NCBI RefSeq assembly: GCF_001619985.1
Contig: NW_017264205.1
Coordinates: 434,001-498,000, forward strand
Direction of reading: 5' to 3'
DNA length: 64,000 nt
From: Xylona heveae TC161
Taxonomy: Eukaryota; Ascomycota; Xylonomycetes; Xylonales; Xylonaceae
Shown: positions 17,422 through 61,785 of the stretch, in pieces
Layout: each line of letters opens with the position of its first letter
Numbering within the stretch: the stretch's first letter is position 1
Program-made: the position numbers and the translations under genes
Notes under the pieces: generated by a model
The model's input: only the letters and a program-made list of their open reading frames with translations
The model's database searches: none
What the model was told of the DNA's origin: nothing

Positions 17422-20400
17422 TTACTCTATCTCCTCAATCCTGGGCCTCGTTCTCTGTTGACTCTCAGGATTGATCGCCAGCCCAGCTATCCCTACTCCT
17501 TGTTCTCCAAATGCGTTCCCAGCCCCGAGACCAACTTCAGTAATTTCTCCAGCTTCATGACCAGGACCAATGCCTTGCGTACCGAAAATCCCCAAACTCT
17601 TGCCCTGCCAGACTTCCATCTCCTCCACCACAGTTCTCGCGTGGCCCACCACAATCTCATCTCTATCCGTTGCCTCAATGTACTTCAGGACGCGAATCAC
17701 CTCTGCTAGGTTCTCCCCTGCCAATCCGAAACCCAACTTGATACCTTGCTCCTGCGCCTTATCCAAAGCCCTGAGCAGGCTCATAACCAGCAACACTGCT
17801 GCTCGTCTTAGGATAATTTTCTCATCAGCCGTCTCTAGCGTCAGCACGGCAATCGCCAGATCCACCGCAGAAGATGTCAACAACGATCCTAGCCCTGCGA
17901 CATTTGTCTCGATCGCCGCGCCGAGAATCGACAACGCGGACGTACGGACCCGGACGTCATCGGAATCTCTGGTGCCTTGCCATCCTTCGATGATCTGGGC
18001 AAGGTGTTGGTCGATCTCGCGCTGACGGCGTTGATCACTGTCCTCATTACCCTCGTCATGATCATCCTCGCCAAATTGCGGGACTTCTCCGCCCCAAGCA
18101 TCTTCTGCTTCCCGTTTCATATCGTCTTCTTTCTTTATCTTCTTTTCGCGCTCTTCGTGCGCTTTTACCCGTCGGCCTCGTCGTCCAGCCACAGCCAGCG
18201 TTGCCTCGCCTACCATTTTCGCAGTTTCTCCTACCAGGCCGCCAGCTAGGCCCTCGACGGTTTTCAGCAATGCTTCGCCTAGTCGGAGACGCTGGTCGAG
18301 ACTGAGCTCCTCGTCGCGGTCAACGTAGCGTTCCAAGAGCGTTTTAATGACCGTTCGGGAATGGGTTTGTGAGAGCAGAGAAAGAGACTTGATTGCATTC
18401 AGGTAGATGTATTCGTCTTCGTCTTGGAGTAGGCCCAGCAAGAGGATCGTAGTAACGGGGATATCAAGCGTAGGGGAGCGTGAAGATATAAGGCCAGTGA
18501 GCAGAGAAAGACCTTGTGCTCGGACGGGCGGGACAGGGTCGGTGAGGTATGTAAGTGCTAGTTGGTGCGTTTTGCGGTCTTCTGCGTGCGGGTCTACGGT
18601 TGGAGCAGCGGTAGGCTGCGGAAGGGAGGCATGCAAGGATATGAGGGAGGAGAGGTTCGTGGCTGCCATGGACAGAGATGACGGAATGGATGGAATGCTA
18701 GAGAGGTAGGCGAGAGATGGGAGGATGTTGGAGAGCAGAGACATGTCTCGTGCAGAAGGGGAGAATCCGGGCGATGACAAGATGGTGGAGAGGAGACTTA
18801 GTGCGATGGATGCAATTTCTGAAGGATCCTCGGATTGAGAAGAGGAGATGCCGGGGGCAGCGGAGTCCGATTCTGGCTGGACAATGGAGCTGAGGCCAGA
18901 AATTGAGGGTTTGCTTTGAGCTTCGATTCTCTGGCGTTTAGCCTTGTCGTTTTCGATAAAGGTTTCGAGAAGTTGCTGTACTAGCTCGAAAAGCTGACCC
19001 GGACTTTCGGCAAGTTTGTCCTTGAGTTTTATGAGCATTGTCTGAACGAGTTTGGCATTGGCTAGCATTTTGAGAGAGTTTGGTAAGTCGGTTGAATTGT
19101 CAGGCCCAAGCTCAAGCTGGTTCGGTGTGGCGGCTGGGGCTTTCAGAGGATCGAGAAGCCATCGTCGTGTGATGGCGAGGAAGATAGTGCTGAAACGGTC
19201 CTTGTCACTGTCGTCTGAGCAGACGAGTCGGATATATTCATCGACCCGCTTGTCCAGTTGTTCGACATATTGAACCATGTTGCGGGAGGCAGATTGGTTA
19301 TCATTCCTTGATATCACAGCGATTTCGCCGCTCGGCTGGGCTTCATATGTCCACCAGGATCGGCCGTCGTACATGATGTCTTCGGATAATTCAATCATCT
19401 GAGGCGTCCCTGCGGAGACTTTGAAATATGCATACAGAAGAGAGCTGGCGTAAGAATAGGCGGTCTTGTCCGTATCTCTGGCTGAGCAGAGGAGTGCCCA
19501 TAAGGGCAGCTTTACTGGCGTGAGCAACCTCTTGGTCAACCCTGGGTTTGGATGAGACGTGAGCAATGTCGACAGTCTTTGAAGGGCAAGTTTGAGTTCG
19601 CTCTCGGAAACGAGGACAGTAACTTCGTTTTGGAGGGACGGGATCGATGATTCCGTGATAAACGTATTCAGTCCAGGATCAACTTTTCCTAAGACTGGCT
19701 CGACGAAGCATTTCCAACCAATGGTCCTAGGCGCACCGTATATGCGTCTTCCAAGGATACCGCCGCCAATAATCACGCCCGCGGCTTTGCTCATTTCTGG
19801 GCCGTCCTCGCCGTCTAGAAGGCTCAGCAATTGCGGTGCTATCTGACTGAAATAAGCTTCTGCAGTCATCATCTTTGGAACTGATGACAGTAACTTCGAA
19901 GCTTGCGTTATTGCTTCTAGCGGCAATGGTGGACCTCGCGATGGAATTGATTCGTCCTTTTTGTTCGCAGGAGGCGGCGGTGGAGGGGCGGTAGAGGCCA
20001 GAAACTCTATGGTATGCCGCACGCCGCGTGGACGAAGAGGTAGTAGAGATAACGGTGTAGATAGACGCGGACGCAGCCATTCTGGGGTAGTAGGCTGAAG
20101 AAGAGAGGTGAGGATGGGAAGGAGGGAGGATGTAGGGGTACTGATAGCATAATATTAGTCCAGGCCAGGGAATGGAAGCAGTTTGATTGTAGAAAGAACG
20201 TTCCTCAAAGATAGGATTACGCAAAAGAGGAATGTCAAAGACATACTTGGCCAGGAGACGCTTAAATATAGTGTCATATTTCTCTTTGTTTGATCCTATA
20301 CTGCTAGGACCATATGCTAGTTCCGCGGCGCCGCAGATCAAGTCAACTAGGGTCCTATCCCGCAGAAGAGGTTCGAGCCCCTTTCTATCATCCTGAGCAA

Positions 20401-20934
20401 TTTGAATCAGGGCATCAATACTGTCTTGTAGATCCCGTATTGCCTCAGAATTAGGCTCGGTCTGAACATCGCGGGCAACAGGCTTTGCCACCACCCCTGC
20501 TGGCAGAACAGACTTTACACGTCTTTCAACAGGTATGCCCACTCCTGGAGATAGTGAGGGATAGATACCCTCGAGGGATATCAAATCGAAGAGTCCATTG
20601 ACTATTCTCCGTCTTTTTGGTTCATAAAGATATTCATCTGCTTTTTGTCCGGAAGTATCATTTTCGTAAATGAGAGCTTTATGTATTGCGACTAGTAAAG
20701 AGCTTGCTTTTTTCAAGACTCTGGTTTTAGGTGATAATTGAGCATTTTCATCTGCATTCAATCCCGTGGATAATCGCTCAATAAAAGACTGAGCGCGCAC
20801 TTGCTCCAGGGATTCTGAGGCCCATCAGCTTCATGTGACATTCCTAGAGAATATTTATGCTCACTTCGAGAGAATACGGGGGCCAGAAACGCTTCTGCAG
20901 CCTCAAGTGAAGCATCCGCCCTATTTACTGTCAT
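17422..20934 (-). CDS. RTP1: RTP1-type RNA polymerase II assembly factor (TANGO6/Rtp1 family)
   Basis: Exons: 20934-20865, 20814-20247, 20140-17422; 3357 nt, 1118 aa. Yeast Rtp1 is a cytoplasmic HEAT-repeat protein needed for assembly and nuclear import of RNA polymerase II. The N-terminus MTVNRADASLEAAEAFLAPV is joined in phase to KSLEQVRAQSFIERLSTGLN; the second junction gives LLANTPTSSLLPILTSLLQP followed by TTPEWLRPRLS and RGVRHTIEFLAS. The C-terminal half carries the Rtp1 signature repeat YLTDPVPPVRAQGLSLLTGL and DEDEYIYLNAIKSLSLLSQT, followed by an acidic/basic linker and a last helical part (SALSILGAAIETNVAGLGSL). Helical repeats are present throughout; there is no catalytic site. The family assignment rests on these C-terminal motifs; the exact biochemical role is carried over from yeast. 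Confidence 0.85.
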
Positions 20935-23900
20935 TTTACATTTGTCTATGACTTCAACATTAGTTGATTTATTTGGTTCTAGAATATCGTCACAAATGTT
21001 CTTGAAATTAATTTGTGATAATCTTTGCTACGTCAAAGGTGAGAGGAGAAATAATTTCATCACGTGATGTCGTGATAAGCGCGTCGCTGCTCCTTCCTCA
21101 TCGCGTCGCCAACCATCTCGCGATGATGATGATGTTGATGTTGTTGTTGTTGCTTCCTCTCCTCTCTTCTCTTCTTTTCCTCTTCACTCCGATCTTCATC
21201 AGCCAAACGGCTCTCGTTGTATTTGCTTTATCACTTTGTTTCATTTGTCTTCCTATTTTTTTCATCTTCATCTGATGGTTTTATCCGATTTTCAGCGTCT
21301 TCCCCGTCCTTGCACCTAAACGGCGACCCCTCGGCCTGTGCGATGTTCAACATATACCGTGCCCTCTTGGTAGCGGGTCTCTCGCCCATCTTCTGGGCAT
21401 CACATAACCCAAATGCAGTGCTCCCTCCATATAGTTTTAGTTCTTTCATCTTTCTGTCTCGTTACGGAGAGATAAGGGTCTAGAACTTAACCCTAAGTAC
21501 ATCAGTCGGAAGAGTCTTCAAGGAAGACTAAGTTTCGTGGCCTTACAAGTCTGTCACTTCCCCAACGAGGCCCACTGACCCTCTGGGTCGCACCTTTACG
21601 GGGAAAGCTCATGGTCTTTGGTAACCGAGGGGGGGATCGTGGCAACCAGAGTCCTTCGGGACGGCAAAGAGGAAGATCTCCATGGGTCGGTCATGATAAG
21701 TTCCGCAACGGGCACCTATCGAGAAATTCCTGCTGGCAGCACTTCGGTCATATGGGCTGCTTCTGCAATGCGGAACGTCTAGAGAGTGGACGAGGAGAGC
21801 GAAGATGGGTTATGCCGAGCGAGATTGAGATTTCAAACGCTATTAGGTTCTTCACATTCTGCGCTGTCATATTTTCTGCCCTCGATCTGATTTTGTTTCT
21901 CTTGCAATTCCCTGCTTTGGTTTCTTTGAGAGTTGGCGATGAGCACTTGTTTTTGTTCCATTTCTACCGACTGTCTTTTCGCAGGTCACGCGAAACGCGA
22001 TTCTTGCTGGCACTCCCTGTTTACTTCCTGTCGTGGTCATCAGAGCACAGTGAAAATCATCTTTGGTGATTTCTTCGGCTTACAAACAAATGCATGTCCG
22101 GGCAAAATTTCGGCCACTGGCAGCAGACTACAGGCGCGAATCGTCCACTCGTCGGAATCGCGTCTAGGCGTGAAGCGAGGCGTGTGTGTCCTGTAGGACT
22201 GTCTTTGCGTCTTTGCGACCTTGCATCCACTCGTCAGAAAGATGCCCTGCGGTGCTGGCACGCAGCGAGATGCCTTCATCATTGCTCAGTATCGATGTCC
22301 ACATCATTCGTTTGTATGGGTGTCTCCATCTCTACTTATGAACCGATGGTTCTGTCTTTACTTGCTTTGATGGACTCTCCCTCGTGTTCAACGGTGACCA
22401 GCAGGTTGTGGCATCAGCGAGGTGCAAACGCTAGATACAGAAATTTGTCCATTGCATTCACGTATGCTTTATGCATCGTGGACTTGCCTTACTGTCTTGC
22501 TCCAGATGATACCACTATGGAACACTGGGCCCCCGGCATTTTTTGCTGACGTGAGACTTAATGATATACAACAAGGACCAGTATATTTGTGAAAGGGCGT
22601 CAGAAATGGAAGGAACAAGTATTTGGGCTCATCGACAATGCGTCTCAGAAATCCGGGACTTCTGAGGGAGGCAAATTCAGTAATCGCATGTTTGCAGAAG
22701 GTATCCAGCAAGGAGAAGACGACCTGAGCATAACCTCCACACCAAACGTGTTTTATGGAGACTAACACTGGGCTCTTTTCTCCAACCTCTCCTCTCTGAC
22801 TGGAGATTACTCCCGCTTGCAAAGCCTTCGTCACGGCAACAGCCAATGACGTTGTCACCCTCTTTTGGGTGTGGTCCGACCAGCCGCGTTAATCATCTCC
22901 CATTTGGATGTGCTTGTCACATCCTGCGCGGGAATAGAGAGCGCTGACAGCTAAGAGGTATACCAGGATATACACGATACCCCCCAAGTTCGGAGGGATC
23001 TGAGAGGGGGAAGGAGACGGTTTTCCATCGGTGCCTGTGTCCGTTTCTATAATGCCACCCACGTTGTACCTCTGTGCTTGCTTCACTTCGGTGATCAAGC
23101 TCAAGTCTTGTTGGGGAGGAATCAAAAGGCGACCACTGAGGGTGCTGCACATACAAACAGAGAGACACCTTACCCAAGGCAGCTCCTCGAGGAATCACAG
23201 AGAATATGTTGACTCGCACGCGGCTCTGGGATCTCGTCGGCAAGCGACGGCGATGCTTGAAAAGGCGACGATAAATGCCGAAAGGTGACTGGGATGGAAA
23301 ATTTAGGGTCTGACGTGGCAAGGCGAGGAGACGATCCGAGAGTTGGCAAGAGAATCGTTTCCCTTGATCAAGTTACGCTTTCACCTGTTGCTGACACCTG
23401 AAGCAGAAGTCTATTCTATCCTTAACACTGACCAAGCTCCAATTTTTCTGTTGTCCAAACAGGGCGTATGCTAGCTACGAGCCTTGTGCCCGACATTTAA
23501 CATCCTCGATACCCCCAGTGTTTGGCACTTGGTCTTGTCTGACAGACCGGCTTCTGCTGCGAATATACAGGTAGTTCCCTGGATGGGTGAAGGGTCTAAA
23601 CAGATATGAACGGCGGGACTTCTCTCGAGTGGAGTCAAAGCTTAGTGCTTGTCTGTCCTAGTATCTGCCCTTTGGCTCATGTGGGGAGTGGCCCCAGCTC
23701 TAGCTTACCACTGGCAGACAAGCCAAGACCGCTGGCACTGATGGTACCTGAGGAGTGATTGATTGGTAAGGAACTGTGGTGTTTGAACATACGCTTTGTG
23801 TTTGCAACGATGGAGCGCGGCTGGGGATAAGTGATGTTTGCATGGAAGCTCTTGTGGATTGGCAGGCTGACCGTTCTCGTAACGATGTCTTGTCGAGAGT

Positions 23901-24441
23901 TCTCTTGTGGCTGGTGGGGGTCGGGGTCACAGCGCGCTGTGGGGGAACTGGGCCGAGGAGGCAACACACTGCCCCCTTTACCTCTAGGGAGGAGGGGGGG
24001 CACCCAATTTTTTTATACGTCTCCCTCACCCCATATCTTCTTTTTTATTGTATCACAGCTAACTACCGACATAGGTATCACAGCCAATTATGACGGAAGG
24101 GCGCGGTTAGAAGACTTGGTGGTGGTTTGTGTTGTAGAACTGGCACCGGAGAACGGTGGATATGACAGCCCACTTGTGGCATGAATATAAATGATACTTT
24201 GAAAGGGAGCAATCCGAATCACATTGGGCCAGCTATTCAAAATGATAAAACTGTTCAAGCATGGGATGCAATTGTGTCTCATCATCCGCATTGATTGTCC
24301 AGAACTTAATTTTTCCACCCTTACATGCTAAATGCATGACCTTCCTCACAATAGTCCAAATAGATTCCTGTTTTTCTCAGAATCAAACAAATTTATCCGC
24401 CATGTGCTTTTCCCTTTCCAACTCTCGCTAAGAGACGATTT
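20935..24441. other. 3.5-kb gene-free interval between RTP1 and PRMT5
   Basis: No reading frame here shows a domain, yet the sequence from about 21,300 to 24,100 is not low-complexity and has a balanced base composition, unlike other spacers in the window. The left edge (20935-21,250) is the RTP1 upstream region with a GAT/GTT trinucleotide stretch at 21,120-21,160; the right edge is the PRMT5 3' side. The middle part holds the candidate telomerase RNA described separately. Confidence 0.6.
21300..23826 (+). ncRNA. Candidate telomerase RNA (tentative)
   Basis: Seen: a 9-nt word TAACCCTAA at 21488-21496, which is exactly 1.5 copies of the complement of the TTAGGG telomere repeat, the usual template length. 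A perfect 7-bp hairpin (AGTCTTC / GAAGACT, loop of 3) follows 16 nt later at 21513-21529, and other hairpins lie nearby. At 23827 there is ATAAGT, followed by a CTAAC branch-site-like word at 24059 and an AG at 24073-24074. Known: telomerase RNAs of Pezizomycotina are long (about 2 kb), Pol II-made, and their 3' end is cut by the spliceosome at an unusual ATAAGT donor. An alternative shorter 3' end could follow the Sm-like ATTTTTTG at 22538-22545. Not found: a convincing pseudoknot or P6/P6.1 domain, and no Sm site just before 23826. One upstream AGGGT could pair with the template. Both ends given are guesses. Confidence 0.3.
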
Positions 24442-24913
24442 CTACATCAAACAACCATTCTTCTTACTCGAATGCAGATCCGAAACGCCCAACCTAACTC
24501 TCTTCTCGCCCAAAAGAACAAAAGCCTCTACCATCCACTCGTACCAAACTTTTCGATCATCCGTTTGACGCCAAATAGAGACGTCTAGCTCTGAATGATC
24601 TGGGAAATAAATCGGTGCCTGGGCAGTGAGAAGCGTTAGTTTCGGTTTGCTTAGACTTCATTTCTCCTGTTTTCCCCTCTCTTCTCGCGCGGCTTAGACG
24701 AGATGGGATCGGGCCCCCCTTCCTTCTCGTCTCTTCTTGTGTGACAAGAGATTGAGTTTGAGAGATGGGGATAGCGGAATCACGCTTCCGGAATTTTTAA
24801 GTCGCGATAAAGAACGAACGGAATAATAGCACCTCATCGATGAATGCAATAGGAAGAAGAAGGGAAAAAAGAAAGAAAGGAAAGGAAAAGAAAAGAAAGA
24901 AGGAAGGAAGAAA

Positions 24914-25007
<94 letters not shown>

Positions 25008-27670
25008 AAAGAGACATACCTTCAAAGGAAAATAAATCGGAAACCAACTAATCATATCCTTGCTCTTATGCGCCATGGATACGGGATTCGTACTCAGCTC
25101 GACATCATCATACAAGACGGTTTCAAAATACCCGCCGAGACCATGACACACGCCACGATCTTTACAGCGGAACGAGAGTTTTGCGAATCGGGCATTATGT
25201 TCGTTTGCGCCATCACCGCCAGCGAGACCTCCTCCGCCACTCTGGATGCCGCCGCCTTTGCGCAATTGGCTAAAGAGCAGGGTATTAGTGGGCGCGGGGT
25301 GCTCGAATTCCCAAGCGATTTTGATGTTTGGTTGGAATGTTGTTGTAGTTCCGCTACCGGCCGATGCATTAAGAGCTGGGGGGATGGAAGGAGTGCCTGT
25401 GCCTTCTGCTTCTTGTGCAGCTGTTGGCTCGGTGGCTACGGCAGTTGTCGATAAGAAATCAATCGCATGTAGCATGACGACGTAGGGCGTTTCGGGGGCA
25501 GACGAGTCGGCGGGGGTGCGAAGAGCAATGTCTGCGTGTAGTTTTGGCGCGGAAATGGGAGTTAAATGCGCAGTGTACGAAGATGGGATACTGATGCCGT
25601 GCATGGGGTTCAGGACATGCTGTACGCCGTCGAGACACTCAGGGCTGAGCTCGTTGTCGGCAAAGGAACCAAGGAGCTCGCTGACGAGGATGTCGACGAC
25701 GCCGAAACCGCTGCTGCCAGCTAGGCTTAGGTCGTCTTCGTCGAGTTCGGGCTCTTCTGGAATGGAACTTGAGGTTGTGCCTCTTTCCTCCTGAAGCTCG
25801 GATTCATCCCACCAGGGTCCTTTCCATGCGCGCATGTCTGATTTGACGACGTGGACACATCCGCCCCAGTCTTCTTCGTTATGTCTTTGCAGGAGAACGT
25901 ATGCGTTCTGGTTCTTCTCAACGGCCCAGACGTCGACGGGGACGCGAGCGGCTTCGCTGGCTCTTAATGCGCGAGTGACTAAGGGTCCACGTCCTGCACC
26001 GACGACGGCGATGACGACTGATCTGCCCCGCGGCCCGGACATGGGTTTCTTGTAATCTACCCAGTCCCGCAGAGCCCGAGTGATTGCTCGCTCGTACCAT
26101 TCGTATTTGATAGGATCCTTTTCAAAGACTTCGTAAGTGATGCTTTCTAGGTTGTCGGCCAGAGGCTGGAGGGGCGCTTGGAGGTAGTCCTGGTATCCTG
26201 CGCCAAAACGCTCAATGGGCGTTTTAGCAGGTTGGTTTCGCTGCAAGTGTCGCATGTAGCTTAGGTGGGGAGTAGGGTCTTTGGAGCGTTTTGAGGCCTC
26301 TGCAGACTGCTGTGTCGCGGCTGCAGCCTCAGCAGGAGTCGGTGACGATGCGCCTGGTGATGGTGATTTGCTGACTCCGCCTGCGGCATCAGCTGTTGCG
26401 CTGGGACTAAGAAAACCCGCTGCTGATGCGGCCGCGGCCGCGGTTGCTTGCGGGTTGTTGTTCAGCTCAAACCCTGGGATGGGGCCCACGTCACTGAGTA
26501 GGAACCATGGCGGAGTCCGGAGTCGCATGAAGCGTGTGATGATGTTTTGATTGGCTTTAGAGAGGACCGGATAGCCTTTACTGTTTTTAAGGAAACTGTT
26601 TTGGTGGATTGAAATGATGCGGACTGGCTCCGAAAGCCACCTCGACTGGACTGCTGCCGGAGGATGATGACGCGGCAGGTTGAGTACTATTAGCACCAAC
26701 TGTTAGTTTGCGATGTTGATGATCATAGGCCGTAAATGAGAATTTGGAAATGGGAACATATGCATAATTGGAGAATCTTGAATTTTGAACGGCAAAAATG
26801 AACGCAGCACTAGGAGGATGGTATGGGGGGTAATATGGACAGCATGCTGCCAAGACCTCTATTCTTACCTACGGACAACCGCGAATTGTATTTACACATT
26901 GTTCTGATAATGTGCCACGCATCCCATGTGCCGAACATGTCTACCTTCTTGCTTCCAGGTTTGCTGCTTCCCAACGTGCTTTGAGAGGTGTATTGATCCC
27001 GCGCAAACGGTGCTAAGCTGCCCATCACATCCTCATCCAGCTCCGCATCAATCTGGTCAACCATAGGGAGGTTTATCAGAACCTGCAGAAATGGCCCCGC
27101 AGCAAGGGCCTCCTGCACAGCGCGAGCATATTGTGCGATGCCTTCTCCAGTATTTCTACCCTGGTGGTGCAGGCGCGGCCCTGGAATAACAATGTTTCCA
27201 ACGCCACAAAAAGCTGCGTATGCCATTTCCAAATTTAAAACTTGTCTTGAGATGTTCGCGATCAGCGGGTCCGGAGATGCCAGATCAATCCAAGAGCTTG
27301 CGCACGCGATGATTTGCGAGATAGTATCATTGGGTGTCAGCGGAGTGTCCACAGGACTCAGAGAAGGTATGACGGGGGCTGGAGGCTCTGACTTCGGCGG
27401 CCTAACATCGGATAGGTTGCTCGGAAGTGTATTGCTGCTTGACAGCGTGAGGTCGTCACCAGACAGACTCGAAAGCTCCGATAAATAGTTAGAAAGAAGG
27501 GTTAGCACGCGCGAGTGAAAGTACGGCGTCGTGATTGGCGTGGTAAGCATATCATAATTCCATGCTTGCGCTTGACGGAGTATCTCATCCGTGACAGGCA
27601 GGGAGCGCTGGGTCTCATGCTGCCCAATGTAAAACGTGGGGTAATGCTCATCGTACCCTGCGGACGCCAT
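24442..27670 (-). CDS. PRMT5: Protein arginine methyltransferase PRMT5 (Skb1/Hsl7)
   Basis: Exons: 27670-26869, 26686-25020, 24618-24442; 2646 nt, 881 aa. This type II enzyme makes symmetric dimethylarginine on Sm proteins and histones. The N-terminal TIM-barrel region (MASAGYDEHYPTFYIGQHET to CKYNSRLSVVLNLPRHHPPA) is followed by RWLSEPVRIISI and NSKGYPVLSK. The SAM site is VVGAGRGPLVTRAL (about 497-502); the PRMT5-specific Phe lies in YEVFEKDPIKYEWYERAI. The double-Glu loop reads SELLGSFADNELSPECLDG, and the C-terminal barrel ends APIYFPDHSELDVSIWRQTD. Length is above the usual 640-850 because of an Ala/Ser/Pro-rich insert at about 345-405 between barrel and Rossmann domains and another near FLSTTAVATEP. 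The start is the Met of MASAGYDE, which follows no conserved sequence. Intron 2 (25019-24619) is unusually long and holds a GAAA microsatellite. Confidence 0.93.
24914..25009. repeat. (GAAA)n microsatellite inside PRMT5 intron 2
   Basis: Over 20 uninterrupted GAAA units on the + strand (TTTC on the transcript), preceded by imperfect GGAA/GAAA units from about 24850. The tract starts about 10 nt after the donor of the last PRMT5 intron and so forms a long pyrimidine run in the pre-mRNA. Confidence 0.95.
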
Positions 27671-28343: not shown

Positions 28344-30857
<2,514 letters not shown>

Positions 30858-60591: not shown

Positions 60592-61785
60592 GATGATGCG
60601 TGAATTTTACAGGTTCAATTGCTCCTGGGTCATCCAAAACAATTAAACTGATGAGCAATAAAGTTACAAAAGTAGAGTCAATTGGCGGGCCGATAAACGG
60701 AGAGTCAGTCGACAGCAACGAATGAGCGTTCGGCTTATCTGATCTTAACAGAGACTTCCCGGCATCTTTGCTGTGAGCCCCTCCGGGCCTGGAGACCAAT
60801 AATTGCCCCACCATGGACCACACTCTCACTGACTACGGTACGTACTTTTGGCCACCCGCGAAAAAAAGTCAACGGGAGTGAAGGAACTGTCACCCCCTGC
60901 ACCGGACCGAGATGACCGGCATCTGCCGGGTAACACCGTGACGGCTTCCCATTCTGGTCTCGTAACAGAAATTTTTCTTCAGGTCTTGGCAGCCCTAAGC
61001 GAGACCCTGCCAAACAGCATAAATAGAGCTCTCCCTTTCCAACTCTTTTCTTTTCTCTTTAGTCGACTTTACTTCGTGAGTCTCCCCCCCCTAAAGAGTG
61101 CAAATCAACACTCTTTGCTCTACTCTGCTCTTTATGCAGTTGTGCATTTTGAAATGAATCGATTGCTAACGTGCGTCTTCGCAATCTACAGATAGAATCA
61201 ATTCTATAGTAAACGTCCTCTTCTGAGCTCCTTACCAGAGCCACAGAATCTCCAACCTGGCTGATGATCGTATTTCCCCGGTGCCCTAGAGTGAAGCCTT
61301 TTACTCTCGCCTTTGTTCAGATCTGACTTTGTCGGTGACGAATTAGAGAGTGGTGATGATCTCGACCCTCTTTCGACTTAGACTTCGGTCGGCCGAGGAG
61401 GGTGGGTGCTGGTGGAGGTCTGACAGGCTTGCTTTTGCAAATTCTTTTTGGAGACAATGGGCAATGGTGGGGCGGGAAGATTTTGATAGAAATGAATATT
61501 ATTCCTTTACAAATAATTTTGTTACAGTTTCCGTGTAATGTGACATCAATGTATTCTCGAGTGTGTTGTTTTCGTAGCGAGACAAAGTCCGATCTATACA
61601 AGGCCATAAGACTAAAATATCGGGTAGCTCATGTTGTTCTTCATACTTATGATCGTCAAGTGGTACCCGTCGTTCGAAAATCAGTGTGGTATCATTGGAT
61701 GCCTTATGCGGCAATGGTAAAATATGTTCTGAGTACCTGTCATATTACTATGGAGTTATTCATGTGTTGCACATGCTCAAGCTGG
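60592..61785. other. Spacer between THR4 and UPF3
   Basis: 1.19 kb holding the THR4 promoter and leader on the left and the UPF3 3' side on the right. CT-rich patches occur at 61,030-61,140. Short frames have no recognisable domain. Confidence 0.6.
60675..60707 (-). promoter_or_regulatory. Two GCRE-like TGACTC sites upstream of THR4
   Basis: GAGTCA on the + strand (TGACTC in the THR4 direction) occurs at 60675-60680 and 60702-60707, 84 and 111 bp before the start codon. TGACTC is the core of the element bound by Gcn4/CpcA bZIP activators, which induce amino acid genes under starvation. A TGACTA variant lies further up near 60,831. The assignment is by motif and gene identity only. Confidence 0.5.

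What the first reader, a model, noticed from the sequence alone, without database searches (positions are those of the whole stretch)
21300..24075. Candidate telomerase RNA gene in a 3.5-kb coding gap
TAACCCTAA (21488-21496) is a 1.5-repeat template for TTAGGG, followed at once by a strong hairpin (21513-21529), in the only long spacer here that is not low-complexity. About 2.3 kb downstream is ATAAGT (23827), with a CTAAC branch word (24059) and AG (24073-24074). This matches the unusual ATAAGT first-step splicing signal known to release the 3' end of Pezizomycotina telomerase RNAs. Weak points: a 9-mer can arise by chance, an upstream AGGGT could pair with the template, and I could not fold the pseudoknot or P6/P6.1.
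Basis: partly seen in the sequence, partly recalled or inferred. Interest (0 to 1): 0.75.

Follow-up and report, generated by a model that had tools for sequence, protein, structure and literature searches.

The report
Telomerase RNA gene of Xylona heveae
This stretch is very probably the gene for the RNA that a rubber-tree endophytic fungus uses as the template for rebuilding its chromosome ends; it is a new member of a known kind, and its 3' end probably lies at a different place from the one first proposed.

Summary
The window is from Xylona heveae TC161 (Xylonomycetes): the PRMT5 neighbour is 99% identical to a Xylona protein whose contig has the same length. Rfam's Ascomycota telomerase RNA model matches 23558-23650 + above its gathering score (33.0 vs 30 bits). 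It is the only match found in the 24.28-Mb genome (E 3.4e-7) and covers P6/P6.1. Telomeres are TTAGGG and a TERT gene is present. The 9-mer 21488-21496 is a template directly abutted by a strong boundary hairpin (21433-21487; 0 of 200 shuffles fold as well). That combination occurs once in the genome, here (reversed-pattern control also 1). AUACGU is the A. nidulans form of the signal that stops splicing after step one. The RNA would be about 2.6-3.1 kb, unusually long. The pseudoknot could not be told from chance, and no transcript data were available.

The parts
21080..21110 (+). Possible promoter words CGCGTCGCT (21080-21088) and CGCGTCGCC (21102-21110), each one mismatch from the Aspergilli TER upstream word CRCGDCGCG
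   Evidence: Weak; 54 sites with at most one mismatch in 64 kb on both strands. The word and its 39-48 nt distance to the 5' end come from PMC3603654.
21433..21487 (+). Template boundary element: 8-bp helix AGUUUUAG (21433-21440) / CUAGAACU (21480-21487) closing an inner hairpin, directly 5' of the template
   Evidence: -21.3 kcal/mol, z -4.79, 0 of 200 shuffles; for coordinates; for background rates.
21488..21496 (+). Template UAACCCUAA: one TTAGGG repeat plus a UAA alignment word
   Evidence: telomere repeat TTAGGG.
22192..22245 (+). Best-scoring pseudoknot candidate (UGUAGG-ACUGUCUUU-GCGUCUUU ... CUUGCA ... AAAGAUGC); unproven
   Evidence: score 33.8, equalled or exceeded in 11 of 60 shuffles; 1 candidate against 0.725 expected. 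Not above chance.
23541..23657 (+). Activation domain (CR4/5-like): P6 23617-23636, P6.1 23638-23650; P5 is either 23541-23547 or 23600-23605 paired with 23651-23657/23656
   Evidence: RF02462 hit 23558-23650, 33.0 bits; fold with the far P5 is -37.2 against -37.6 kcal/mol unconstrained; with the near P5 -15.0 against -19.1.
24003..24014 (+). Sm-like site CCCAAUUUUUUU; predicted mature 3' end in or at the end of this tract
   Evidence: Sequence; comparison with CGGC3-5U7-12 of Aspergilli in PMC3603654.
24015..24020 (+). Non-canonical 5' splice site AUACGU
   Evidence: AUACGU is the A. nidulans form.
24058..24064 (+). Branch site GCUAACU (branch A 24062)
24072..24074 (+). 3' splice site UAG

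Best explanation
A single-copy telomerase RNA gene on the + strand, transcribed away from the TANGO6/RTP1-like gene (inferred). TERT binds the P5/P6/P6.1 domain around 23541-23657 and copies UAACCCUAA (21488-21496) into TTAGGG; the helix at 21433-21487 stops copying at the template's 5' end; the repeated UAA lets the enzyme realign. The precursor runs past an intron-like stretch of 60 nt. The spliceosome cuts before AUACGU (24015) by first-step attack from the branch A at 24062, and the A at intron position 1 blocks exon joining. This leaves a non-polyadenylated RNA ending in the Sm-like U tract at about 24014. Shown here: the sequence elements, their order, the covariance-model match, the telomere repeat and a TERT gene. 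Inferred: transcription, cleavage and protein binding.
For: RF02462 match above gathering score, only one found in the genome, E 3.4e-7, 0 of 14 control genomes ring. TTAGGG repeats at the ends of 5 contigs. TERT with Telomerase_RBD and RVT_1 domains. Template abutted by a boundary hairpin, 0 of 200 shuffles as stable; 28 of 2000 random 55-mers are as stable and an 8-bp helix ends at 1643 of 63800 positions. T6-ATAMGT-N25-55-GCTAAC once in 24.28 Mb, about 360 nt past the covariance hit. The 60-nt ATACGT-to-TAG span lies within the 56-120 nt of 13 intron-like matches with GT starts in the window. Element order and sequence agree with Aspergilli TERs (PMC3603654 parts 1-4 of 6 read; PMC4299874 section 6).
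Against: No RNA data. Pseudoknot not above chance. RF02462 aligns over 98 of its 1858 positions only, and finds nothing in 21350-22700 at E 10. The genome search scored 2 of 2932 first-look candidates. P5 is ambiguous, and the near-P5 domain folds no better than shuffles (z -1.31, 20 of 200 as good). The reversed 3'-end pattern also occurs once in the genome, and reversed T6-ATAMGT is commoner (24) than the real one (10), so uniqueness alone means little; the position does. No relatives' DNA, so no covariation test.
Confidence: 0.95

Rival explanations
1. Not a telomerase RNA: the gap is protein-coding or neutral spacer with coincidental motifs.
For: Open frames of 152 and 151 codons on the + strand; the second has a weak L6_membrane match below cut-off (19.8 against 30 bits). 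The template 9-mer alone is expected 0.26 times per window.
Against: The first frame has no homologue at E <= 1 (the second was not searched there). 4 of 5 frames had no Pfam match and the fifth was below cut-off. The covariance hit is E 3.4e-7 for the genome, with the 3' block at the right place and the boundary hairpin abutting the template.
Confidence: 0.03
2. A telomerase RNA as in the best explanation, but with the 3' end at the reader's ATAAGT (23827), using the branch site at 24059 or another one.
For: ATAAGT is the commoner form in Aspergilli and lies downstream of the activation domain.
Against: No Sm-like tract before it; 235 nt to the branch A; the ATACGT at 24015 has both an adjacent T run and a 47-nt spacing.
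Confidence: 0.05
3. A decayed or second, non-functional copy, the working telomerase RNA being elsewhere or missing from the assembly.
For: The pseudoknot was not found and only a small part of RF02462 aligns.
Against: No second match in the genome; template, boundary, P6/P6.1 and 3' block are all intact.
Confidence: 0.02

Closest known systems
Aspergilli telomerase RNAs (A. nidulans, A. carbonarius, A. oryzae; PMC3603654), members of Rfam RF02462-type Pezizomycotina TER
   Same: UAA-CCC-UAA template as reported for A. carbonarius; boundary helix of 8 bp beside the template; P6/P6.1 domain; Sm-like U tract, AUA(A/C)GU, GCUAACU; intergenic, single locus.
   Different: Longer (at least 2582 nt from boundary helix to 24014, against 2035 nt by RACE in A. 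oryzae); boundary helix abuts the template, mostly 2 nt away in Aspergilli; different neighbours; pseudoknot not recognised here.
Schizosaccharomyces pombe TER1
   Same: 3' end made by the first step of splicing beside an Sm site (PMC4299874 section 6 and passages, PMC5199203 passages).
   Different: S. pombe slows step two partly by a 22-nt branch-to-3' splice-site distance; here that distance is about 12 nt, so the block is expected to come from A at intron position 1.
Vertebrate telomerase RNA
   Same: TTAGGG template and a P6/P6.1 (CR4/5) domain.
   Different: About 440-450 nt, H/ACA 3' end rather than an Sm site (PMC5199203 passages; PMC6115765 passages).

Membership tests
Pezizomycotina telomerase RNA | Template complementary to the telomere repeat, more than one and less than two repeats | tested here: met
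   UAACCCUAA at 21488-21496; TTAGGG telomeres.
Pezizomycotina telomerase RNA | Template boundary helix 5' of the template | tested here: met
   21433-21487, z -4.79. Single sequence, no covariation.
Pezizomycotina telomerase RNA | P6/P6.1 (CR4/5, three-way junction) domain | tested here: met
   RF02462 33.0 bits, above the gathering score. P5 strand ambiguous.
Pezizomycotina telomerase RNA | Pseudoknot with U-A.U triples | tested here: inconclusive
   Two scans at chance level.
Pezizomycotina telomerase RNA | Sm-like tract followed by AUA(A/C)GU, branch and 3' splice site | tested here: met
   24003-24074; cleavage itself not tested.
Pezizomycotina telomerase RNA | TERT gene in the same genome | tested here: met
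   C1:2714673-2715141 -.
Pezizomycotina telomerase RNA | Transcribed, non-polyadenylated, bound to TERT | not testable with these tools
   No RNA or biochemical data.
Aspergilli TER locus (synteny; not a defining feature, A. nidulans lacks it) | ZPR1 and TATA-binding-interacting protein as neighbours | tested here: not met
   15 of the 19 ORFs of 230 or more codons in the window scanned with Pfam; neither family among the matches.

The most novel reading that the evidence does not exclude
A telomerase RNA of about 2.6-3.1 kb, among the longest known, in which the template and the activation domain lie about 2 kb apart and the core pseudoknot has diverged beyond, or been replaced by something other than, the Pezizomycotina form.
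Probability: 0.12. Interest if true: 0.6.

Novelty: new member of a known kind. Interest (0 to 1): 0.42.

Why it matters
Telomerase RNAs evolve so fast that most must be found one by one. This may be the first from Xylonomycetes: a full-text search for Xylona heveae with telomerase returned 0 papers, though the main Pezizomycotina survey (Qi et al. 2013) was not held. It gives a divergent data point for structure-based models, suggests that the AUACGU first-step signal is not confined to A. nidulans, and offers a long RNA in which to ask how far template and activation domain can drift apart.

Tried and rejected
Two pseudoknot scans, strict and relaxed, against dinucleotide shuffles (40 and 60): at chance. 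A by-eye pairing UGAUUUU 21888-21894 / AAAAUCA 22053-22059 was located but not pursued. Rfam searches restricted to 21350-22700 and 23652-24120 at E 10 gave no telomerase match. Promoter word: two near-matches, uninformative because 54 sites with at most one mismatch occur in 64 kb on both strands. A protein reading of the frame 21611-22069: no homologue at E 1. C/D snoRNA-like match on the - strand 22233-22310: below its gathering score (24.7 against 40 bits), not pursued. Rfam on the TERT locus L011: no match.

Full report
Where the window lies. The genome is held without a name (24,276,669 bases, 17 contigs). The PRMT5 open frame beside the finding is 99% identical, over 90% of the query, to a Xylona heveae TC161 protein on a contig of 733,607 bases. 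The window's contig C13 is also 733,607 bases. The host is therefore almost certainly Xylona heveae, class Xylonomycetes, not a Eurotiomycete.

Surroundings. The finding sits in a gap of about 3.5 kb. On the left is a - strand gene with TANGO6_N and RTP1_C1/C2 domains (ORFs within 17422-20800, and a further short ATG frame to 20934). On the right is the - strand PRMT5 gene, whose last exon matches 24621-24445. Open frames inside the gap have no convincing protein match: the 152-codon frame has no homologue at E 1, and of five frames scanned one gives a sub-threshold Pfam match. The 151-codon frame was not searched against the large protein set. Two predicted ORFs also overlap the P. chrysogenum TER.

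The observation. TAACCCTAA is at 21488-21496 and is the only copy in the window, but alone it is not significant (23 of 100 shuffles contain one). ATAAGT 23827, CTAAC 24059 and AG 24073 are as stated.

Independent evidence. Rfam RF02462 (Ascomycota telomerase RNA) matches 23558-23650 on the + strand at 33.0 bits, gathering score 30. It is the only match found in the whole genome, E 3.4e-7, and 0 of 14 control genomes ring; that search scored 2 of its 2932 first-look candidates. The structured part of the alignment is P6 (23617-23636) and P6.1 (23638-23650); the names P6 and P6.1 for these model helices rest on recall and on PMC3603654. The genome has TTAGGG repeats at the ends of C3, C6, C7, C10 and C13 and encodes a TERT with Telomerase_RBD and RVT_1 domains.

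Template and boundary. The 9-mer gives one TTAGGG repeat plus a UAA alignment word, the layout reported for A. carbonarius (PMC3603654, parts 1-4 of 6 of the main text read). The 55 nt directly before it fold into an 8-bp helix closing a hairpin: -21.3 kcal/mol, z -4.79, 0 of 200 shuffles as stable. Of 2000 random 55-mers in the window 28 are as stable, of 679 in the gap 6, and an 8-bp helix (loop 4-59) ends at 1643 of 63,800 positions. In Aspergilli the boundary is nearly always 8 bp and mostly 2 nt from the template (figure legend); here it abuts. The upstream AGGG is held inside this hairpin in 6 of 6 folds. Template bases are 0.76-0.94 unpaired in a fold of 21140-24014, but 0.07-0.99 in a 1.46-kb context.

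The 3' end. In Aspergilli an Sm-like U tract is followed directly by AUAAGU (AUACGU in A. nidulans) and then GCUAACU. A. niger's element supports first-step cleavage in S. pombe, with 3' ends inside the Sm site, and A1G turns cleavage into splicing (PMC4299874, section 6 read; other passages). Here CCCAATTTTTTT (24003-24014) runs into ATACGT (24015-24020), then GCTAACT (24058-24064; branch A 24062) and TAG (24072-24074). The pattern T6-ATAMGT-N25-55-GCTAAC occurs once in the genome, here; the reversed pattern also occurs once, so about one chance match per genome is to be expected. T6-ATAMGT alone is at 10 places, the reversed word at 24. What carries weight is the place: the one complete block starts about 360 nt past the end of the only covariance hit, same strand, which by chance would be of the order of 1e-5 (inference from these counts). 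The 60-nt span from ATACGT to TAG fits the 56-120 nt of 13 GT-starting intron-like matches in the window, 7 of them with CTAAC (consensus matches, not proven introns).

Length. Template to 24014 is 2527 nt; from the boundary helix 2582 nt. With a 5' end anywhere between the left gene (20934) and the boundary helix the RNA is about 2.6-3.1 kb, and about 2.86 kb if the weak promoter words are right. Lengths I read elsewhere: 2035 nt (A. oryzae, by RACE), 1930-2130 nt (other Aspergilli, estimates), 1584 nt (A. nidulans) and about 2030 nt (C. glabrata). An unrecognised intron inside the RNA is not excluded, and Qi et al. 2013 (the main survey) was not held, so 'longest' is not claimed.

What is not shown. 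The pseudoknot was not found above chance: strict scan 1 candidate against 0.725 in 40 shuffles, relaxed scan 4 against 3.1 in 60 shuffles with 11 of 60 tops at least as good. RF02462 aligns over 98 of 1858 positions and finds nothing in 21350-22700 at E 10. The P5 strand is ambiguous: with the far strand (23541-23547) the fold is within 0.4 kcal/mol of the optimum but encloses an extra hairpin; with the near strand (23600-23605) it is 4.1 kcal/mol above the optimum, and that 61-nt piece folds no better than shuffles (z -1.31, 20 of 200). Neighbours differ from the Aspergilli TER locus, as they do in A. nidulans. No relatives' DNA was available, so no covariation could be tested, and there are no RNA data.

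Verdict. Telomerase RNA gene, probability about 0.95. 3' end at about 24014, probability about 0.9. New member of a known kind, from a class for which the library search found no telomerase paper.

Noticed in passing
window 61184-61428 +: U3 snoRNA gene (Rfam Fungi_U3, 149.9 bits).
   Followed up: no
window 28737-30707 +: Prp43-type DEAH helicase (best solved-structure matches are PRP43, 1128.8 bits), next to PRMT5. Prp22 and Prp43 release stalled spliceosomes from S. pombe TER1 (PMC5199203 passages), so the neighbourhood is suggestive, but it may be coincidence.
   Followed up: partly
window 22233-22310 -: Antisense match to an archaeal C/D-box sRNA family (sR5, 24.7 bits against a gathering score of 40); C/D-like boxes, probably chance.
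   Followed up: no
window 24694-25047: Low-complexity run giving long FFLS (-) and KERK (+) open frames beside PRMT5, over an apparent intron of that gene.
   Followed up: no
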